From: a virus
IMG/VR virus record: IMGVR_UViG_3300032236_000971
Coordinates: 43,890-107,889 of that record
Direction: 5' to 3' (one strand)
DNA: 64,000 nt
Positions 29,479-39,487 of this stretch are shown piece by piece (within the stretch, counting starts at the first letter, position 1; each line of letters starts with the position of its first letter). The notes under the pieces were generated by a model. That model did no database searches. It saw nothing but the letters and a program-made list of their open reading frames with translations, and had not been told where the DNA came from. The translations under genes and the position numbers were made by a program.

Positions 29479-29894
29479 ACCGTAGAGCATTCTTTGGTTT
29501 GCTACCTGCAGCTCCTATCGGTATGGTGATGGCTGCTGAGGCTATGGCAAAAGCACCGCCAGCGTCAATGGCTCCTGATAAGGCGTTGATGACTATGGCT
29601 GCTCATAAGCCTCCGCCACCTCCTCCCCCACCACCGAAGTATCCGCAGTGGGGATCATTTACTGTATATGATAAGGGTGATCAAGAGTGGTATAAAGATA
29701 TTGTATCAAAGCATCGATCAACCAACTTTGTTACGACTACTCAACCATCTAATATCATCCTTGGTGAGGGATTCAAGGTTGAATCAGCGCCCGGCCAATT
29801 TGATAGTGAAATAAAAGTTGATATGTCTGTCGGTAAAGACGGTCATCTTTGGCTGAAGATTAATGATGAGTGGAAGCGGATTGTCACCGAATAA
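29475..29894 (+). CDS. Tat-signal protein with poly-proline linker
   Basis: The 139-residue protein opens with a twin-arginine-like signal (MNRRAFFGLLPAAPIGMVMA: RR-x-F-F then a hydrophobic stretch). A nine-proline run (about 46-54) follows, then a beta-rich C-terminal domain (GSFTVYDKGDQEWYKDI...GHLWLKINDEWKRI). It is probably exported folded. It is coupled to the previous gene by ATGA. The role is unknown. Confidence 0.65.
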   Translation: MNRRAFFGLLPAAPIGMVMAAEAMAKAPPASMAPDKALMTMAAHKPPPPPPPPPKYPQWGSFTVYDKGDQEWYKDIVSKHRSTNFVTTTQPSNIILGEGFKVESAPGQFDSEIKVDMSVGKDGHLWLKINDEWKRIVTE

Positions 29895-29896
29895 AC

Positions 29897-29925
29897 TTGA
29901 CTTTCAGTAGATGTTCCGCTATACT
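29897..29925 (+). promoter_or_regulatory. Sigma70-like promoter for tmRNA and tRNA-Arg
   Basis: TTGACT (29897-29902), 17 bp, TATACT (29920-29925), beginning right after the stop of the Tat-signal gene. Expected start near 29932, the 5' side of the tmRNA acceptor piece. Confidence 0.85.
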
Positions 29926-29931
29926 AAATAT

Positions 29932-30200
29932 ATTGCTTGGTTGTTGAGGCGTTAGGAATAAACGATCCAGACTGGGGGGCAGTACCCCACGCCTCCACCA
30001 TAAGCAGATTGTGTCACACTTTATTGAGGTTGACGACCTCAAGTCTGCTTTTGATGGGGGCGAAATAGGCTCGATGGGTTGTAGTAAAGTTACGATTAGA
30101 CTAAGTAAACTCGTAAATGCAAACGATAACAATGCATCTCGTTTGGCTCTAGCAGCCTAACATGAGTCCGGTGGGAACTTGGAAACAGAATCCCACCACC
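29932..30200 (+). ncRNA. ssrA: Circularly permuted (two-piece type) tmRNA
   Basis: The acceptor piece comes first and ends GCCTCC-A-CCA at 29991-30000. It contains a stem TGGGG/CCCCA with a 7-nt loop. A processed spacer (30001-30055) with nested hairpins follows. The coding piece starts GGGGGC at 30056-30061, which pairs with GCCTCC and includes the G3-U70 pair recognised by alanyl-tRNA synthetase. GGCTCGATGGG matches the conserved tmRNA D-loop region. The tag frame at 30119-30160 reads ANDNNASRLALAA then stop. This gene order is that of alphaproteobacterial tmRNA. The 5' and 3' ends are approximate. It should rescue stalled ribosomes and tag products for degradation. Confidence 0.93.
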
Positions 30201-30207
30201 TTTCCAT

Positions 30208-30284
30208 GGTTCCTTAGCTCAGCTGGATAGAGCATCAGACTTCTAATCTGAGGGTCGTTGGTTCGAGTCCAACAGGAATCGCCA
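30208..30284 (+). tRNA. tRNA-Arg (UCU)
   Basis: The acceptor GGTTCCT pairs with AGGAATC, followed by discriminator G and an encoded CCA (30282-30284). The anticodon stem is TCAGA/TCTGA, with loop CTTCTAA placing UCU at 30242-30244. The T loop is TTCGAGT. It reads AGA and AGG, useful for AGA-rich phage genes. It is probably co-transcribed with the tmRNA. Confidence 0.95.
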
Positions 30285-30299
30285 TTCTCTGGAGACAAT

Positions 30300-30500
30300 A
30301 TGAAGAAGATTAAAGATGTTCCTGTGGGCGTTTTAATACTTGTCCTTTCCCAATTTGTCTTCTATGGTGTAATATATCTGACCAAGTTTCCTCCTTTCTG
30401 GGAACTAGCTGGTATTGTATTTTGTACGCTTATAGCAAGCGATATGGTTCATTTTGGTATTAGATTAATCAAAGGTTATGAATATGATCCCGACGAATAA
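30300..30500 (+). CDS. Small membrane protein, 66 aa
   Basis: Start at 30300, after CTGGAG. Two hydrophobic helices (VGVLILVLSQFVFYGVIYLTKF and ELAGIVFCTLIASDMVHFGI) and an acidic C-terminus. It overlaps the gp33-like gene by 23 bp. No known family recognised. Confidence 0.65.
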   Translation: MKKIKDVPVGVLILVLSQFVFYGVIYLTKFPPFWELAGIVFCTLIASDMVHFGIRLIKGYEYDPDE

Positions 30501-30702
30501 TGCGATTGAAGCCATTGAGAACCTTCGTTTCACAAAGAACATTGACTACATTGATGCAGTTGTTTTATGGTGCGAGACAAATAAAATTGAAATTGAATTT
30601 ATTGCTGCTCTAATTAAAAAAGATCCAGTAATGAAGTCAAAGCTTCAGGTTGAGGCTGAGAATTTAAATATCCTCAAGAGAGGAGCTCGGCTTCCCATAT
30701 AA
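30478..30702 (+). CDS. 33: Late-transcription coactivator, gp33-like
   Basis: gp33 bridges RNA polymerase and the sliding clamp to activate late transcription with gp55. The 74-residue protein has IDYIDAVVLWCETNKIEIEFIAALIKKDPVMKSKLQVEAENLNILKRGA, which resembles the gp33/'Trans_coact' family of T4-like phages. Several TATAAATA elements in this window fit a gp33-gp55 system. The sequence is short, so the call is moderate. Confidence 0.62.
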   Translation: MNMIPTNNAIEAIENLRFTKNIDYIDAVVLWCETNKIEIEFIAALIKKDPVMKSKLQVEAENLNILKRGARLPI

Positions 30703-31183: not shown

Positions 31184-31449
31184 TGGGTTATAGTACAAGA
31201 AGAACTGCTTGCGTTGAGGTTGATGTTGATTTTGACCTCGATGATTTCGCCGAAGATGATTTGATTGACTATCTCGAAGATAAAGGCTATACCGTCGTCG
31301 AAGGTAAAGTCGATAACAAAGATATGAAAGAAGTTGACGCTATGATTTGGGAGCTTTACCAAACATGGAAACTTCCTTGCAATGAAATGGATTTTTGGAG
31401 AGCAATGCATAAATTTTTCTCCGATTACTACAACAAAGTTAGTGCATGA
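31183..31449 (+). CDS. Hypothetical acidic protein, 88 aa
   Basis: I choose the ATG at 31183, spaced 6 bp from AGGAGG, over GTG 31180. It is an acidic N-terminal domain (VDVDFDLDDFAEDDLIDYLEDKGYTVVEG) followed by a helical tail. The V-E-V-D-V-D pattern suggests a small beta-alpha fold. It overlaps the gp59 gene. Function unknown. Confidence 0.65.
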   Translation: MGYSTRRTACVEVDVDFDLDDFAEDDLIDYLEDKGYTVVEGKVDNKDMKEVDAMIWELYQTWKLPCNEMDFWRAMHKFFSDYYNKVSA

Positions 31450-32027
31450 TGTCTGCTTTTGAATGCTACAAAGAGTATATTGCTCTTAAGAATCATTTCA
31501 CCAAACCTTCATATAATTATTTCAAATACAATGGCAAGAGCAAGCTGAACATCAGTTCGTTTGATGCTAGAAAAGATAAGCTATACTTTATGAAGGTGGC
31601 CAAACACCCCGATCCACGAAACTATATTTTATCAAATTTGGTTAAAAACCCCAAAATTTGGATAAAGGAAATTGCATATTCCCAGAGCTCTGAAGGGGTT
31701 TATAGGGATTGGGCTAAACGTCAGCAGTCGTTGATGTACCTGTTTAAAGAAGAATTGTCCAAGTTGAATGCGGATTTTGATTCCAATTTCAAAGTGCTGG
31801 ACCAAACGCATCCATACGTTATAAAGCTTTTCATCCGCGAGGAGATTAGTCTTGAAACGTTGGTACTCCTCGTTGACCTTGTTAAATGTTCTGCTTACTG
31901 GGCAAAGAGGTTTGAATATGATCCTACAGTCGAAGATGTCTTGAACAAGATTATGAAGTACCGACCATTTATACAATATGACCGTGAGAAGGTAAAAAAT
32001 ATTGTACTTGACAAATTCGGCTCGTAG
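31446..32027 (+). CDS. 59: Helicase loader gp59
   Basis: gp59 loads the gp41 replicative helicase onto gp32-coated forked DNA. The 193-residue protein begins FECYKEYIALKNHFTKPSYNYFKYNGK and continues RKDKLYFMKVAKHPDPRNYILSNLVKNPKIWIKEI. These match the T4 gp59 N-terminal pattern (YxLYxxIKxHxxxKYDxxKYN, RRDKYFFxKL, FISNLVANxxAWI). A C-terminal all-helical domain follows. The following gene is gp32, as expected. Confidence 0.88.
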   Translation: MMSAFECYKEYIALKNHFTKPSYNYFKYNGKSKLNISSFDARKDKLYFMKVAKHPDPRNYILSNLVKNPKIWIKEIAYSQSSEGVYRDWAKRQQSLMYLFKEELSKLNADFDSNFKVLDQTHPYVIKLFIREEISLETLVLLVDLVKCSAYWAKRFEYDPTVEDVLNKIMKYRPFIQYDREKVKNIVLDKFGS

Positions 32028-32036: not shown

Positions 32037-32113
32037 AAATAATGTTGGAGCGTTTCTTTGATTCGCTCTTCATACAAACAATACTATTAATACTAACAAT
32101 ACGGAGAATACAT

Positions 32114-33016
32114 ATGGTAGATTTTGCTAAACTTAAGGCTAATTCAGGTAAGAAGTCACTTGAAGCCCTCACCGCTGAACTCACAAAGATCTCAGGCGGA
32201 CAATTCGATAACTCCAAAGATGACAGGCAGTGGTATCCAAACGTCGACAAGGCGGGTAATGGTTACGCTGTTATTCGTTTTCTCCCTGCTCCTGGTGATG
32301 AAGACATGCCGTTCATTCGCATGTTCAATCATGGGTTCAAAGGTCCGACTGGTTCTTGGTTGATTGAGAATTGCCCTACTTCAAAGGGTCAGTCGCATAA
32401 GTGCCCTGTCTGTGAAGCTAACTCTGAACTTTGGAACAGTGGTCTTGAATCAGATAAGACAATCGCACGTGAACGTAAGCGCAAGCTAACTTTCATTTCA
32501 AACGTGTATGTGATTACTGATCAGCAGAATCCAGAAAACGAAGGTAAGGTGTTCTTGTTCAAGTATGGCAAGAAGATCTTTGATAAGCTTAACGAGGCTA
32601 TGAATCCTCAGTTTGCTGATGAAGACGCTATGAACCCATTTGATCTTTGGGCTGGTGCTAACTTCAAGCTTAAGATTCGTAATGTCGAAGGCTATCGCAA
32701 CTATGATAAGTCAGAGTTTGCTAAGTCTGGTCCTATGCTTGATGATGATTCTGAAATGGAATCAATCTGGAAGCAGGCTCATTCTCTTCAGGAGTTCCTT
32801 GCTCCTTCTAACTTCAAGTCATATGATGAACTGAAGGGTAAGATGGTTAAGGTTCTTGCTTCTGGTTCGGCTGCAGCTGCTCGTGCTACAGCAGCTGTTG
32901 AGGAAGATGAAGCCCCATGGGAAGCTCCTGCGCCAAAACTTAAGGCAGCAGCTGCTCCTAAGTTTGATGAAGACGATGACGATATGGACAGCTTCTTCGA
33001 TAAGCTTAAGGCATAA
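32114..33016 (+). CDS. 32: Single-stranded DNA-binding protein gp32
   Basis: Coats ssDNA during replication and recombination. Start at 32114, where the basic MVDFAKLKANSGKKSLEALTAEL leader begins. An earlier in-frame ATG lies at the promoter start and is ignored. The core holds the OB region and zinc-binding HKCPVC (about 96-101). WYPNVDKAGNGYAVIRFLPAPGDEDMPF and YGKKIFDKLNEAMNPQF also fit T4 gp32. An Ala-rich linker leads to the acidic tail EDDDDMDSFFDKLKA, the protein-interaction domain. At 300 residues it is the size of T4 gp32. Confidence 0.95.
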   Translation: MVDFAKLKANSGKKSLEALTAELTKISGGQFDNSKDDRQWYPNVDKAGNGYAVIRFLPAPGDEDMPFIRMFNHGFKGPTGSWLIENCPTSKGQSHKCPVCEANSELWNSGLESDKTIARERKRKLTFISNVYVITDQQNPENEGKVFLFKYGKKIFDKLNEAMNPQFADEDAMNPFDLWAGANFKLKIRNVEGYRNYDKSEFAKSGPMLDDDSEMESIWKQAHSLQEFLAPSNFKSYDELKGKMVKVLASGSAAAARATAAVEEDEAPWEAPAPKLKAAAAPKFDEDDDDMDSFFDKLKA

Positions 33017-33542: not shown

Positions 33543-36395
33543 TTATGCAGCTACTGTTAAATATGCTTTTAACAATTCATTTGATGGAGCGCCAAGCGAC
33601 CCAGGGTTACTTAGTCCTGGATTGTTTACACCTTTTGGTCTTGGGCTAGGATTAGGACTTTGAGTTGGAGTACTTGTCTGTTTAGGAGCAGACGGTGTAT
33701 CGGTAGCTGGTGTTAAGTTTTCAGCAACTTGTTTGGGGGCTGTATTTTCTTGTTCAGCCGTTTGATTTGATGGCGCTGATGGCGTTTCACCAGCTGGTTT
33801 ATTTTCAGCTACAGCTTCTCTTTGTTTTTCAAGATACTGTTGATATGGGTTATTTGTGCCTAATGCAACTCTTTGACCATCTTTACCTTCTTGTTCAATA
33901 GCATGATAGTTTGATGCATTCTTTTCACCAAAACCTTGACCAGCTGGATATGTTTTTAATCTTGGTCCGCCAGAGCCAGTATATTGTTCCCAAACTTGCA
34001 TTCCAGTAATTTTACCATCTTTATCTTTTACATAACCAGCAACGGTAGCGGCATGAGTTGTCATAGTCCCTGGTGAACCAGTACCACCAGCATCATATCT
34101 TTCAGAAGCTCCGCCTTGTCTATTCATAAATGTAGCAACTGGGGTGCCAACAGGTAATTCATTCTCAGTTGCATTAGCTCCTTTACGCCAAGTTGTAACA
34201 CTATCAGTGCTACCTACTGCGGCTTTTGCTAATGTAACACACTGCTGGTTTTTAAGATGCGGTGCTACTGATTTAATACGGTTAGCAAGCTCTTGTTGAG
34301 TTTCACCTTGTATCGGCGGAACAGAAGGTAAAGCTGAACCAGAAGCTCCAGCAGGGGTTGCTTGAGGCGTAGTACCTGGGCTTGTTATAGCCCCATTACT
34401 TTGTTGTTCGGCAGCAGGTGTTGGTGCGTTTTGTCTACCGTTTGATGGAGTATACGTTGGCGCTACAGTTGGCGTATTAGAAGTAACTCCTGCGCTGCTT
34501 TGATAATTAGCTAATCCAGCACCAGTAGTTGACGGCGCTTGACTCATATCTGTTTTTGTAGCGTCAGCTTTCGCTGGTTGAGCTCCGCCAGCTGGAGCAG
34601 CGCCGCCTTGTACCTCACCTGCTGCTATACTACCTCTTTTAATATCAAAGCTACCTTGTTCAGCTTTTGCGGCTGAGAAGTGCATTGGATCTTTTACAGA
34701 TTTCCAATTCATACCCCACCCAAGACCGTGAGCAGCTGCTATAGTGCCTGTTTGTGGAGGTAAATCTGTCTTAGTTGACTTATTAGGATTGCTTCCTGGG
34801 TTGATATCAATAGCAGCACCCATAGCATGGAAGCTCTTTACGCTTGGATTATTGACATTAGCACGATCAGCATATCCACCGATGCTGTTAATTTTATATC
34901 CAGTTGCTTCAAGGTCATTAATGAAGCCTTGGAAATTAGAAGCGTAAGCAGCACCGACTTTAGTTGACTTACCGCTTTTAGTTTTAACTTCAGTTAATCC
35001 ACCTGCTGCTGCTTTATCCCCGCCCGCCTCTGCCGCTGTCGCGCCTGCTGGCGGCGCTCCCGCTGGTGCTGATGGAGTTGGTGTTGCTTGAGGAGTCGCT
35101 CCTGCTGCTGAAGGGGTAACACCAAGAACCTGCGCACCATTTGATGTAGGAACTCCATTAACTTTAAGCTCTTCTGTTTTAATAGTCATTTCTTTAGCAG
35201 AGAATAAAATTTCTCTTGCTTTAAATTCTATTATTTGAGCAGTTGTTTCTTTCTGACCTGTTTGTATTTTTTCTTTAACAGGATTACCATTCCCCCCATC
35301 GGCACTATCAACTCCTGTGGGTGAAGGTGTATCTGATTTTTTATCTTCTTTCTCAGCGTCTTTATTGAGACCAGGCACATTACTGTAAACATAATCTTTT
35401 ACTGCTTCTGCGACCTTTTTTAAATTTTCAACAGATTCAGGATCATCATCAGGAAGCTTGCCGTAAACTGCCTGATAAACATCTCTTGCTAACAATCCAG
35501 CTTGAATTGCTACAGAACCAGCTGATGCTGCTACAGCTGCTGGCGTTCCAATACCTAATGTACCTGCTGCAGCTGCGCCACCAGCCGCACTTAATGCGCC
35601 GCTGGTTACTTCTGCGGCTGCGCCTTTAAAGTCTCCCTCCATTGCTCTCCAAATACCGAAACCAATACCTGTAACCAATCCAACACCAGGTACTGCGGCT
35701 GCTGCTATTTTAGGTAGCTTTGGACCAACAATTTTTACTATAGCTTCTTTAATTGCTTTCTCACCGACAGCAACGCCAGCACCAACTACTGCGCCTTCGG
35801 CTGCTCCTGCTGCTATTTGTCCAGCATTACCGCCACCAGCAGCCGCTAATCCTCCTCCAACAAGAGCGCCAACTTTACCAGCACCTTTTGCCTCACTATG
35901 AGGTGTTTCAACAATAGGAGCTTTTTTCTCAGCAACTGCGTCAATTTTAGCTTTTGCTTCCTTTGATGTCATCTCAGGATTTTTAGCTTTTTCTTCAGCA
36001 ATCTTTTTAGCTTTTTCTTTTAAAGCTGCTTTACGTTCTTCTTCTGTTTGTGCTTTCTTAGGCTCTTCTTTAGATTTGTTTTTGTTTTCGGTATTTAAAT
36101 TTCTATCTAATATATCATTTGATGAAGATTTGTTCTTATCAGTAAGTAATTTTAATATCTTATCAAGAATAATATTCTGTTCTTTTTGAATATCAATTGA
36201 CTGAGATAGAAGTTCGTTGTTTTGAATTATACCTGCGCCAAATGTACCGAACTCACCACTTTCAGGTTTTACATTAGATAATGGTTTGTTCGCGGTTCTT
36301 TTTTTATCACCGCTGAACATTCCTGAAAATACACTTTTGATTGCTTCTTTGCCGAGCTTTCCTGCACCAGAAGCTATTGTTCCTGCTATACCCAT
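33543..36395 (-). CDS. Giant tail protein with M15 peptidase and CHAP-like (BPSL0067) domains
   Basis: The 950-residue protein has an Ala/Gly-rich, partly membrane-like region (about 170-320). It then has the module IIEFKAREILFSAKEMTIKTEELKV (about 390) and an M15/VanY-type D,D-carboxypeptidase domain (about 480-590; SFHAMGAAIDI and DPMHFS supply the zinc ligands). Low-complexity Pro/Ala/Gly linkers follow, then a CHAP-like domain (about 715-835; QQCVTLAKAAVG with Cys, and HAATVAGYV). Several linkers match its 1030-residue neighbour. It probably digests peptidoglycan during DNA entry and sits in the tail. Its start overlaps the upstream stop. Confidence 0.8.
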   Translation of the reverse strand: MGIAGTIASGAGKLGKEAIKSVFSGMFSGDKKRTANKPLSNVKPESGEFGTFGAGIIQNNELLSQSIDIQKEQNIILDKILKLLTDKNKSSSNDILDRNLNTENKNKSKEEPKKAQTEEERKAALKEKAKKIAEEKAKNPEMTSKEAKAKIDAVAEKKAPIVETPHSEAKGAGKVGALVGGGLAAAGGGNAGQIAAGAAEGAVVGAGVAVGEKAIKEAIVKIVGPKLPKIAAAAVPGVGLVTGIGFGIWRAMEGDFKGAAAEVTSGALSAAGGAAAAGTLGIGTPAAVAASAGSVAIQAGLLARDVYQAVYGKLPDDDPESVENLKKVAEAVKDYVYSNVPGLNKDAEKEDKKSDTPSPTGVDSADGGNGNPVKEKIQTGQKETTAQIIEFKAREILFSAKEMTIKTEELKVNGVPTSNGAQVLGVTPSAAGATPQATPTPSAPAGAPPAGATAAEAGGDKAAAGGLTEVKTKSGKSTKVGAAYASNFQGFINDLEATGYKINSIGGYADRANVNNPSVKSFHAMGAAIDINPGSNPNKSTKTDLPPQTGTIAAAHGLGWGMNWKSVKDPMHFSAAKAEQGSFDIKRGSIAAGEVQGGAAPAGGAQPAKADATKTDMSQAPSTTGAGLANYQSSAGVTSNTPTVAPTYTPSNGRQNAPTPAAEQQSNGAITSPGTTPQATPAGASGSALPSVPPIQGETQQELANRIKSVAPHLKNQQCVTLAKAAVGSTDSVTTWRKGANATENELPVGTPVATFMNRQGGASERYDAGGTGSPGTMTTHAATVAGYVKDKDGKITGMQVWEQYTGSGGPRLKTYPAGQGFGEKNASNYHAIEQEGKDGQRVALGTNNPYQQYLEKQREAVAENKPAGETPSAPSNQTAEQENTAPKQVAENLTPATDTPSAPKQTSTPTQSPNPSPRPKGVNNPGLSNPGSLGAPSNELLKAYLTVAA

Positions 36396-39300
36396 TAGCG
36401 TCTAGCCTTCAAATGTTGATTTTGAGAGTGTAGTGCTTGTTGCTGTCCTGTAATAACAGCCATAGCAAGATACGGTAATGTTTTAGCAAGCTTGCCAATA
36501 AATTCTTCACCAGCAGTATTTGGTTTATGCGCAGGTCTATCTTGTGATACTTTAGATGTATCTGAACCACTAGTTTTAGCTGCTGGCGCTGGCGCTGCTG
36601 CTTGCGTTGATTCTGCTGTTGGTGAAGTAAGTTCAGCTGGCTTTGTTGGAGGCATAGGTATTGACTCAGCGACAGGTTGTAAATCCTGAGACCCTGTTCC
36701 TACATCAAACGACGTTTCATACCCAGCTATTTCACTTGATGCTAAAGCAGCTGCTGACTCTTCTTTTTCTACAGTGTTAGAAACATTCATCATATTAGCA
36801 GAACGAATATCTCTATCTTTTAATCCTTCGTCCCCGCCAGGAAGTTTAGTTGCATCTGGTTCTGGTTTAGTTAAATCTTCACCAGCAAGAGCTTTTTTAT
36901 CTTCTTCAGTCATTGCTGGTCTAGCATTTCCACCAGCAGCTATAATAATAGGAGGAGTGGATAGTTGTTTTGCTGCTCTTGTTTGTTCAGTTCCTGATGT
37001 AGCAGCTACAGCAACTTTCGCTTTAGCTGCTGGAGTTTCCGTTTGAGCATCTAATTTTTTAGCAACCTCTGGCGGTGGCGCTGGTGGCGTTTGATTAGGT
37101 GTAGTTTTAGAAGCTTTGGTTGCCTCAGCTTGTTGTTGCTGAACAACTGCGGGAGCAGAAGTGGTTCCTGCAGGTTCAACAGATTCTTTTTTCTCTGCGT
37201 CTTTTTGAGCAACCTGAGCCTTTGCTTCTTCAGTTGTTTTTTTCTTTTCAGCTTCATCCGTTGCTTTTACAGCCTGGTTAGCATATTTAATTCTGCTATC
37301 CATATGCTTAATTCCAGCAGCTTCATAATGCTTTTCAACAGCTACAGTAGCATCAGTAACATTATTTGTTTTCTTTACAGCAGCAATCGTACTCTTATGA
37401 GTTGTTTCTAACTCTTTCTTTAAGAAGCCATAGTTAGCATTTGGATCAGTTGCTTCTTGTCCTGTTTCTTTTAAATACTTTTCAAACTCTTTTCTACGAG
37501 GGCCAGTCCACTGCGCCCATCCAAGCCCACCACGACCTTGTTTTACACCTTTTTCCTGAATACCTGCTTGTAACCCTGCTGACTCGTGACCTAAGTTACC
37601 AACAACACCAGCTGCTTGTTCTTTTGATAAGCCAAAGTCTTTCTGAAGTTTCGCCATAACATCTGGCGCTTGTTCAGTAAATGATTTACCGCCAGCTAAT
37701 GGTTTATTGCTACCTGATGATGGCGCTGCCTCTGGTGATGCTTCTGGTGCTGCGCTAGGAGCATTTTGTCTACCATTTGATGGCGCATATGTTGGGGCTT
37801 GTTGTTGTGTAGACGAAGTAACACCAGGACCGCCAGTATAATTTGGCATTCCAGCGCCAGCACTAGGAGCAGCTTGTTGACCAGCTGGACCAGCTACACT
37901 TGGTGCGCCAGTTTGTGCTGCTTGAGGTACTCCAGGAGCTCCACCAGGACTTTCACCAGTTCCTCCGGAACCTCCAGTACCAGTCCCGCCAGTAGATGGC
38001 GCTGCTGCGGAGGGTCCGCCTTCATTACCCCCAGTAGCACCAACTTGCTGACCAGTGGTTGGTTTCATTTCTACATTTAATGACTGAACTTCAAATGTTA
38101 GTTTATCAGCATTAAATTTAATCTGATCAGCTTTATAAGAAATAAGTTCTGGCGTTACTGTTGCTTCCGGACCTCTATTTCTAGCCTCTTCAATATTAGA
38201 AGTTTCAGCTTTCTGTGCTAAACTTTCACCAGTTGTTGCTGGCGGCGGAGCAGATGGAGTTGCTTGTGGTGTAGTTGGAGCTGGAGTTGCGATTGCTTGA
38301 ACTGGAGCCGTAGGAATAGGAGGACGATTTTGTTCCTCTTTAGTTTCTTTCTTTTTTTCAACAACAGGAACAGTAGCTTCTTGTGGAGTTGTATACTTTG
38401 ACAATGGATCGGGATTACCCATATCCATAGCCATTTTTCTAGCTGCTTGAACTTTAGGATCTTTCAACGCTTCAGGTATAACTTGCCCATTGCGTTCAAC
38501 TACTACGCCACCAACTTTAACTTCTTCATTTTCATCTTCAAGTTTTTTCTTTTCGGGCTTATCTGGATTAAGGAATGTATCAACATTATCTTTATCAATA
38601 GTTGGGAGAGCCATCAAAGCAGATGCTGTACCTAATACACCTCTACCTTTACCTAATAGTTTCTTCCAGTCATAACCTTTATTACCACCAGTATCATTAC
38701 CTGTTGTAGTATCACCCTTACCTATCTTAGCAGCGATCTGAGATAATAATTCAGATGAACGTTCTTGAATAGAGATAACATCACGTAATAGATCAGCGTT
38801 ATCTTTTAAGCTATCTTCTACTCTTGTATATTGGAAACGCTTTTCAGTAGCTTGGCGCTTTTGTTCTGACTTTTCGTTTTGTTCTTTATCATCACCCTTC
38901 CAAAGCTTTTTGACTGCTTCTGTTTTATCATAAATGCCAGGAAGAGTGCTTTTAAGCGCAGCTTTGCCGAACCTAGCAAGTCTACCAGGCTCTTTGTTTT
39001 TACCTTCTACAGGTTCTTTAGTATTGTCTTCTGTTTTTAATGGCTTGTAGTTAAATGGATTGACGCTAAGATCTTTTCTATCTTTACCAGTCCATAACTC
39101 ACGAAAGCTTTCTGCCTTCTCATAAAGACCAGGAAATGAATCTTTAAGAATAGCTCTACTGAATCTACCTAATCTAGTAGTTTTTTCTTTTGGCTCTTCT
39201 TCTTTTTTCTTTCTGCCTCTTTTCTTTGGCTTCTTTTCAGCTTCAGCTTGCTCAGGCGTAGGTTTAGCATCGTCAGTTGATACTTTAGCTTTCTTTTTTG

Positions 39301-39487
39301 GCTTCTTTTCAAGCTCTACAGGCGCAACAATAGGATACTGCTCGTTGATAATTTGATTAAACTTATCACCGGCATAATTACCTTCTTCGTTCGTGATCTT
39401 TCCTTGATCATCACGAAACCACTCTGTACCGAGCCATTCACAGACAAAAGCATGACCAAACTTATTTTGTTTTCTTTTCTTAGCCAT
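36395..39487 (-). CDS. Giant tail protein with phage tail lysozyme domain
   Basis: The 1030-residue protein has a basic N-terminus with two copies of a helical motif (RLGRFSRAILKDSFPGLYEKAE and RLARFGKAALKSTLPGIYDKTE). It then has ISYKADQIKFNADKLTFEVQSLNV (about 450), Gly/Ala/Pro linkers and a Phage_lysozyme2-type domain (about 605-735; VGNLGHESAGL with catalytic Glu and GLGWAQWTGPRR). A long low-complexity C-terminal region ends in a membrane-like segment. It and the 950-residue protein share the scaffold motifs but carry different enzymes. Likely role: local wall digestion at injection. Confidence 0.78.
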   Translation of the reverse strand: MAKKRKQNKFGHAFVCEWLGTEWFRDDQGKITNEEGNYAGDKFNQIINEQYPIVAPVELEKKPKKKAKVSTDDAKPTPEQAEAEKKPKKRGRKKKEEEPKEKTTRLGRFSRAILKDSFPGLYEKAESFRELWTGKDRKDLSVNPFNYKPLKTEDNTKEPVEGKNKEPGRLARFGKAALKSTLPGIYDKTEAVKKLWKGDDKEQNEKSEQKRQATEKRFQYTRVEDSLKDNADLLRDVISIQERSSELLSQIAAKIGKGDTTTGNDTGGNKGYDWKKLLGKGRGVLGTASALMALPTIDKDNVDTFLNPDKPEKKKLEDENEEVKVGGVVVERNGQVIPEALKDPKVQAARKMAMDMGNPDPLSKYTTPQEATVPVVEKKKETKEEQNRPPIPTAPVQAIATPAPTTPQATPSAPPPATTGESLAQKAETSNIEEARNRGPEATVTPELISYKADQIKFNADKLTFEVQSLNVEMKPTTGQQVGATGGNEGGPSAAAPSTGGTGTGGSGGTGESPGGAPGVPQAAQTGAPSVAGPAGQQAAPSAGAGMPNYTGGPGVTSSTQQQAPTYAPSNGRQNAPSAAPEASPEAAPSSGSNKPLAGGKSFTEQAPDVMAKLQKDFGLSKEQAAGVVGNLGHESAGLQAGIQEKGVKQGRGGLGWAQWTGPRRKEFEKYLKETGQEATDPNANYGFLKKELETTHKSTIAAVKKTNNVTDATVAVEKHYEAAGIKHMDSRIKYANQAVKATDEAEKKKTTEEAKAQVAQKDAEKKESVEPAGTTSAPAVVQQQQAEATKASKTTPNQTPPAPPPEVAKKLDAQTETPAAKAKVAVAATSGTEQTRAAKQLSTPPIIIAAGGNARPAMTEEDKKALAGEDLTKPEPDATKLPGGDEGLKDRDIRSANMMNVSNTVEKEESAAALASSEIAGYETSFDVGTGSQDLQPVAESIPMPPTKPAELTSPTAESTQAAAPAPAAKTSGSDTSKVSQDRPAHKPNTAGEEFIGKLAKTLPYLAMAVITGQQQALHSQNQHLKARR

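What the first reader, a model, noticed from the sequence alone, without database searches (positions are those of the whole stretch)
29932..30200. Phage-borne permuted tmRNA with a novel tag
The gene has the acceptor half first, an excised spacer and the coding half second. It has a G-U pair for alanine charging, and the tag is ANDNNASRLALAA. The permuted form belongs to alphaproteobacteria and a few other groups, so it both indicates the host and was probably captured from it. A phage copy could change tag sequence and protease targeting, or rescue ribosomes after host mRNA decay. It shares a promoter with tRNA-Arg.
Basis: partly seen in the sequence, partly recalled or inferred. Interest (0 to 1): 0.86.

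Follow-up and report, generated by a model that had tools for sequence, protein, structure and literature searches.

The report
Phage-encoded two-piece ribosome-rescue RNA
A T4-like phage carries its own ribosome-rescue RNA (tmRNA) in the rare two-piece form; phages are already known to carry such genes, but this copy belongs to an old phage-only lineage that has lost the segment where a knotted structure usually thought to be needed normally sits.

Summary
Window 29893-30200 is a circularly permuted, alpha-type tmRNA gene (RF01849 123.6 bits, E 3e-33; RF04321 108 bits) in a 108-kb T4-like virus record. It has a G3·U70 pair and the tag ANDNNASRLALAA, with tRNA-Arg(UCU) just downstream. The interpretation needs correcting. 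Phage-borne two-piece tmRNAs are already published (phage Melnitz and about 50 others), and Melnitz has its copy at the same place, upstream of genes 33-59-32. The gene is not a recent capture from the host: its nearest relatives are other phage contigs (up to 97.5% identity, against at most 67% to sampled bacteria), and 59 of 62 phage copies group together. The tag occurs in 16 viral contigs and in none of 84,980 bacterial/archaeal genomes. Selection is strong: T-stem, P2, 3' hairpin and a stem in the excised spacer covary, and all differences within this tag are synonymous. New here: this lineage lacks about 21 nt upstream of the tag (the PK1 segment) and about 46 nt downstream, which hosts keep, so it looks like a tagging tmRNA without pseudoknots. 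About half of the relatives overlay a T4 late-promoter box on the sigma-70 promoter. Most likely it works by ordinary trans-translation with host SmpB, AlaRS and ClpXP.

The parts
29897..29925 (+). sigma-70-type promoter TTGACT-N17-TATACT; in about half of the relatives a T4 late box TATAAATA is overlaid at this place (here TATACTAAATA)
   Evidence: transcription itself not shown
29932..30000 (+). acceptor piece of the tmRNA: P2 strand 29962-29968, T arm 29973-29989, acceptor 3' strand 29990-29996, A 29997, CCA 29998-30000; the 5' end is a guess from the promoter
30001..30055 (+). spacer predicted to be excised; stem 30002-30010 with 30042-30050 (covarying in relatives), then UUGAU before the coding piece
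30056..30200 (+). coding (mRNA-like) piece: acceptor 5' strand 30056-30062 (G30058·U29994 = G3·U70), P2 strand 30076-30082, tag, 3' hairpin 30170-30176/30191-30197; lacks the segments upstream and downstream of the tag that hosts keep
30119..30160 (+). tag reading frame ANDNNASRLALAA with stop TAA
30208..30284 (+). tRNA-Arg (anticodon UCU), conserved neighbour downstream of the tmRNA
30478..30702 (+). gp33-like late-transcription coactivator
   Evidence: phrog_254, E 3.5e-14
31446..32027 (+). gp59-like DNA helicase loader
   Evidence: phrog_269
32042..33016 (+). gp32-like single-strand DNA-binding protein (probable true start near 32114), anchor of the conserved locus
   Evidence: phrog_224; synteny

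Best explanation
A working, phage-inherited two-piece tmRNA. RNA polymerase reads it from a sigma-70-type promoter (with a T4 late box overlaid in about half of the relatives), together with tRNA-Arg and perhaps genes 33-59-32. The precursor folds so that the spacer forms a hairpin on top of the acceptor stem; host tRNA-processing enzymes cut the spacer out and leave two pieces held together by the acceptor and P2 helices. Host AlaRS charges it through G3·U70, and host SmpB brings it to ribosomes stalled on broken messages during infection. Translation switches to the tag ANDNNASRLALAA, the ribosome is freed, and the tagged protein goes to ClpXP through the terminal LAA. The phage gains steady rescue capacity while host DNA and mRNA decay. 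Shown: gene, fold, covariation, synonymous-only tag variation, conserved locus, phage-only lineage, loss of two segments that hosts keep. Inferred: transcription, cleavage, charging, tagging, and the benefit to the phage.
For: Two Rfam models far above threshold and ARAGORN. 95.6% of cells paired over 81 phage copies, with two-sided changes in T-stem, P2 and 3' hairpin. Spacer stem paired in 97.9% of cells against 72.6% with partners shuffled. Three variable tag sites within the same-tag genes, all synonymous; ANDN and the last two alanines invariant across 82 phage copies although their codons vary. Same locus and order in 25 of 35 relatives chosen by gp32 and in Melnitz. ClpX reads the C-terminal LAA of the tag (PMC3968760). 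Phage carries no SmpB or ClpP of its own in the held record, so host partners are needed.
Against: No RNA data. The lineage lacks the segment that corresponds to PK1, which E. coli tmRNA needs unless a stable hairpin replaces it (PMC3968760), so tagging may be weak or absent. One pair of the inner helix (29953/30091, U-U) is mismatched in the window. The purpose (rescue capacity) is not distinguished from other benefits by any test made here.
Confidence: 0.72

Rival explanations
1. Tag re-targeting: the point of the phage copy is its own tag, which changes which adaptor or protease handles stalled proteins, sparing phage proteins or speeding the recycling of host ones.
For: None of the 42 phage tags that could be read is among the 25 host tags read in the sample; the exact tag is in no bacterial genome held; the middle of the tag varies while LAA/VAA-like ends stay. 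The Melnitz authors propose selective degradation of host proteins (PMC9004378).
Against: Host tags also vary between species, and the host sample is small and skewed. The C-terminal degradation signal is kept, so the default fate should be the same as for host tags.
Confidence: 0.12
2. Decoy or inhibitor: the RNA occupies SmpB or AlaRS and blocks host trans-translation, as proposed for the tag-less tmRNA-like RNA of phage DS6A.
For: Pseudoknot segments are lost; a phage RNA limited to the tRNA-like domain inhibits tmRNA in E. coli (PMC4131195).
Against: The tag frame is kept by synonymous-only change and ends in the degradation signal, which a decoy would not need.
Confidence: 0.1
3. Passenger: a fragment of a host ssrA gene left by imprecise excision or a recent capture, without function in the phage.
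For: tmRNA genes are common integration sites, and the Melnitz authors discuss this origin (PMC9004378).
Against: The gene is complete, covaries, keeps the same place in diverse contigs and forms a phage-only group with at most 67% identity to sampled hosts.
Confidence: 0.03

Closest known systems
ssrA of Methylophilales phage Melnitz EXVC044M (MZ577097) and other phage two-piece tmRNAs (PMC9004378)
   Same: Permuted alpha-type tmRNA in a T4-like phage, at the same place upstream of gp33 and gp59, with a TTGACA-type promoter carrying TATAAATA
   Different: Melnitz has a 142-nt spacer with a small ORF, a glutamine riboswitch just downstream and another tag; pieces of the two genes align at about 83% over 28% of the query
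alpha_tmRNA (RF01849) of Alphaproteobacteria, e.g. Caulobacter and Rhizobiaceae
   Same: Gene order, G3·U70, T loop, P2, 3' hairpin, ANDN...LAA tag plan, spacer stem
   Different: Phage copy lacks about 21 nt before and about 46 nt after the tag, has a longer spacer, and is at most 67% identical to sampled host genes
One-piece tmRNAs of phages (mycobacteriophages Bxz1, Wildcat; Bacillus phage G; Streptomyces phages)
   Same: tmRNA carried by a phage
   Different: Standard gene order; other phage groups and hosts

Membership tests
Permuted (two-piece) tmRNA, RF04321/RF01849 | Covariance-model score above the curated threshold | tested here: met
   108 bits (47 needed) and 123.6 bits (50 needed)
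Permuted (two-piece) tmRNA, RF04321/RF01849 | Acceptor half first, spacer, coding half second | tested here: met
   29932-30000, 30001-30055, 30056-30200
Permuted (two-piece) tmRNA, RF04321/RF01849 | Alanine identity pair G3·U70 | tested here: met
   G30058·U29994; the U·G pair is invariant in 81 of 81 phage copies
Permuted (two-piece) tmRNA, RF04321/RF01849 | Tag frame with a proteolysis signal at the end | tested here: met
   ANDNNASRLALAA, stop TAA; synonymous-only variation
Permuted (two-piece) tmRNA, RF04321/RF01849 | Pseudoknot segment (PK1) upstream of the tag, as in alphaproteobacterial hosts | tested here: not met
   63 nt from acceptor 5' end to resume codon against 83 or more in hosts; host motif absent. 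Two-piece tmRNAs are known to have fewer pseudoknots (PMC3968760), so I treat this as a variant trait and not as a bar to membership
Permuted (two-piece) tmRNA, RF04321/RF01849 | Precursor cut into two stable pieces | not testable with these tools
   Only the covarying precursor stem is seen
Permuted (two-piece) tmRNA, RF04321/RF01849 | Alanylation, SmpB binding and tagging in cells | not testable with these tools
   experiment needed

The most novel reading that the evidence does not exclude
A widespread T4-like phage lineage has evolved a minimal, pseudoknot-free two-piece tmRNA with phage-specific tags. It is expressed early and, in many members, late from overlapping sigma-70 and T4-late promoters, and its excised spacer can carry small genes. 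It would be a natural test of whether PK1 is needed for trans-translation.
Probability: 0.4. Interest if true: 0.66.

Novelty: new variant of a known kind. Interest (0 to 1): 0.47.

Why it matters
Two-piece tmRNAs in phages are known but have been treated mostly as genes taken from hosts. Here they form an old phage lineage fixed at one place in the replication region, with reduced structure. If such an RNA tags proteins, PK1 is dispensable in nature and the minimal parts of trans-translation can be read from evolution. It also makes the question of why large phages carry ribosome-rescue RNA testable in cultured phages that carry the same kind of gene unannotated.

Tried and rejected
Megablast of the first 25 kb against phage records found nothing. 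A first DNA search was swamped by tRNA-Arg matches. Recent host capture was tested by identity, tree and tag search and rejected. A phage-specific spacer stem was considered and rejected: hosts have a spacer stem too (82% of cells in the same register), so only its length is phage-like. In some searches my acceptor pattern also caught a proline-rich gene upstream in the window, so the window's host identity there (0.62) and the window row of that helix table are wrong; both were redone. An H-type pseudoknot scan is only weak evidence because it mostly reflects region length. No SmpB or ClpP was found in the record. The primary papers on two-piece tmRNA structure are not held where I looked (PMC516066), so naming the missing segment PK1 rests on my own knowledge, and whether the spacer stem has been described before could not be checked; two searches of the held library found no description of it.

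Full report
WHAT IS THERE. Reading the sequence: T arm 29973-29989 with the GGCAGUA loop that matches the alpha consensus, acceptor 3' strand 29990-29996, CCA 29998-30000, a 55-nt spacer, then GGGGGCG 30056-30062. The third acceptor pair is G30058·U29994. The tag runs 30119-30157 with stop 30158-30160. tRNA-Arg(UCU) begins at 30208. The promoter is TTGACT-17-TATACT. The stretch folds better than every one of 200 shuffles.

CONTEXT. The window is the last 64 kb of a 107,889-base virus record. Proteins are T4-type: gp6 baseplate wedge, RNR, PhoH, thymidylate synthase, polynucleotide kinase, gp33, gp59, gp32. gp6 scores best against Caulobacter phage Cr30 and, after a Stenotrophomonas phage, Sinorhizobium phages (38-39% identity); gp32 is nearest to cyanophages (57-59%). 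No close isolate is held. The tmRNA lies upstream of gp33-gp59-gp32. The isolated phage Melnitz has its annotated ssrA at the same place, upstream of the late-transcription coactivator and the helicase loader.

HOW COMMON. One short motif of the coding half is in 107 stretches of IMG/VR. Of 35 relatives chosen by gp32 alone with at least 4.4 kb upstream, 25 carry a tmRNA upstream on the same strand, and 21 of these are followed by tRNA-Arg (some of these contigs are near-copies of each other). All 9 larger viral records searched whole gave a hit; two of these (G396, G398) had been reached through gp6 and so are not selected for the tmRNA. Cultured phages of Caulobacter (RBC63, BL57), Sinorhizobium (Phosso), Mesorhizobium (Cp1R7A-A1), Rhodobacter (RcSimone-Hastad, RcXuper) and Ruegeria (DSS3P8) carry permuted tmRNAs above threshold that are not annotated in their records.

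SELECTION. Over 81 distinct phage copies the helices of the acceptor piece and the upstream coding piece pair in 95.5% of cells and the 3' hairpin in 96.0%, with two-sided changes in T-stem, P2 and 3' hairpin. Among 13 rows read with this same tag the genes differ at three tag sites, all synonymous. Across 82 phage copies ANDN and the last two alanines never change although their codons do. The spacer, otherwise unalignable, keeps a 9-pair stem in fixed register (one base after CCA, five bases before GGGG): 97.9% of cells paired over 83 spacers, against 72.6% (maximum 75.5%) with partners shuffled and about 28-57% in registers that break the helix. In hosts the same register pairs in 82%, so the stem is a general precursor feature. 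Its most likely role is to hold the precursor's acceptor stem together for processing (inference).

ORIGIN. The copy is 97.5% identical to another phage contig and at most 67.3% identical to any of 92 distinct sampled host genes, which were chosen for similarity to it or to its tag. In the tree 59 of 62 phage rows, the window included, form one group (support 85/92); a weaker wider group holds 61. The exception, L077, carries the host-type segments. Support is moderate because only 223 columns exist. The exact tag peptide is in none of 84,980 bacterial and archaeal genomes and in 16 viral contigs. So the gene is passed down among phages. Any capture from a bacterium happened long ago, and the present host cannot be read from it with confidence; Melnitz infects a gammaproteobacterium (PMC9004378).

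STRUCTURAL DIFFERENCE. From acceptor 5' end to resume codon hosts have 83-113 nt (median 84) and phages a median of 63 (66 of 83 have 69 or fewer). The host motif CCGUUAU or a close variant is in 81 of 93 hosts and 5 of 83 phages. From stop codon to the ACAGAA motif the median is 70 in hosts and 24 in phages. In the window only 16 nt remain between the last P2 pairs and the resume codon, too little for a pseudoknot; 74% of phage and 2% of host regions admit none at all by a simple scan (partly trivial). In E. coli tagging needs PK1, although a stable hairpin can replace it (PMC3968760). A working tmRNA of this form would be informative. The loss of the segment is shown; that it is PK1 is from my knowledge of alpha tmRNA.

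PROMOTER. In 79 phage upstream regions the best sigma-70 match averages 10.1 of 12 (shuffled 8.1), mostly at one distance. TATAAATA, the T4 late box, lies at that place in 38 of 83 phages and 0 of 118 hosts. The window itself has TATACTAAATA. Early and late expression is an inference for the relatives.

WHAT IS KNOWN. The Melnitz paper of 2022 (PMC9004378) described that phage's two-piece ssrA and found 53 two-piece calls among 133 unique tmRNA structures from 402 phages, 50 of the 53 from marine or aquatic samples; it proposed maintenance of the translation machinery or selective degradation of host proteins. One-piece phage tmRNAs are older knowledge (PMC4131195). The finding is therefore a member of a known kind. 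The reduced structure, the phage-only lineage and the promoter overlay are what I did not find described in the papers held.

VERDICT. Observation confirmed, interpretation partly supported; new variant of a known kind; mechanism most likely ordinary trans-translation with host partners.

Noticed in passing
L076 (spacer 293 nt), L007 (264 nt), L022 and L067 (149 nt), L051 and L082 (159 nt); Melnitz L424 (142 nt): Some phage tmRNA spacers hold a small ORF, several with a ribosome-binding-like site, and some end in frame at the UAG of the coding piece (...GAK stop). The excised spacer may serve as a site for cargo genes. No PHROG match to the four tested.
   Followed up: partly
L516 (record G398, 202 kb): A beta-type permuted tmRNA with tag AANDSRFALAA, then a reverse-strand ORF that looks like a homing endonuclease (no Pfam match at 0.001), then what looks like the tail of an alpha-type tmRNA: possibly an endonuclease that invaded and replaced part of the gene.
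   Followed up: partly
L016, L017, L086: Alpha-type tmRNA in a phage with UvsX and DnaB-like genes where ARAGORN reads a 29-residue tag AKKSTTFASILPVKVERVSLVQEALAASA without NDN; unexplained.
   Followed up: partly
L047, L387, L063: Tags with extra residues between the first alanine and NDN (ATYASNDNVPYSAMKVAA; ANLKASNDN...).
   Followed up: no
L425 (Sinorhizobium phage Phosso): Permuted tmRNA with a 410-nt spacer, unannotated in the record; it keeps the host-type CCGUUAU segment.
   Followed up: partly
L430 (Roseobacter phage DSS3P8): A GOLLD RNA (12-445) lies directly upstream of the unannotated permuted tmRNA (616-1002).
   Followed up: no
L148 (Neorhizobium vignae), L172 (Neorhizobium tomejilense): Repeated tag matches about 390 bp apart (three and two), which suggests tandem partial copies of ssrA in the host chromosome.
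   Followed up: no
window 33543-39487, - strand: Two large adjacent reverse-strand ORFs (950 and 1030 aa) with weak endolysin and tail-protein matches.
   Followed up: no
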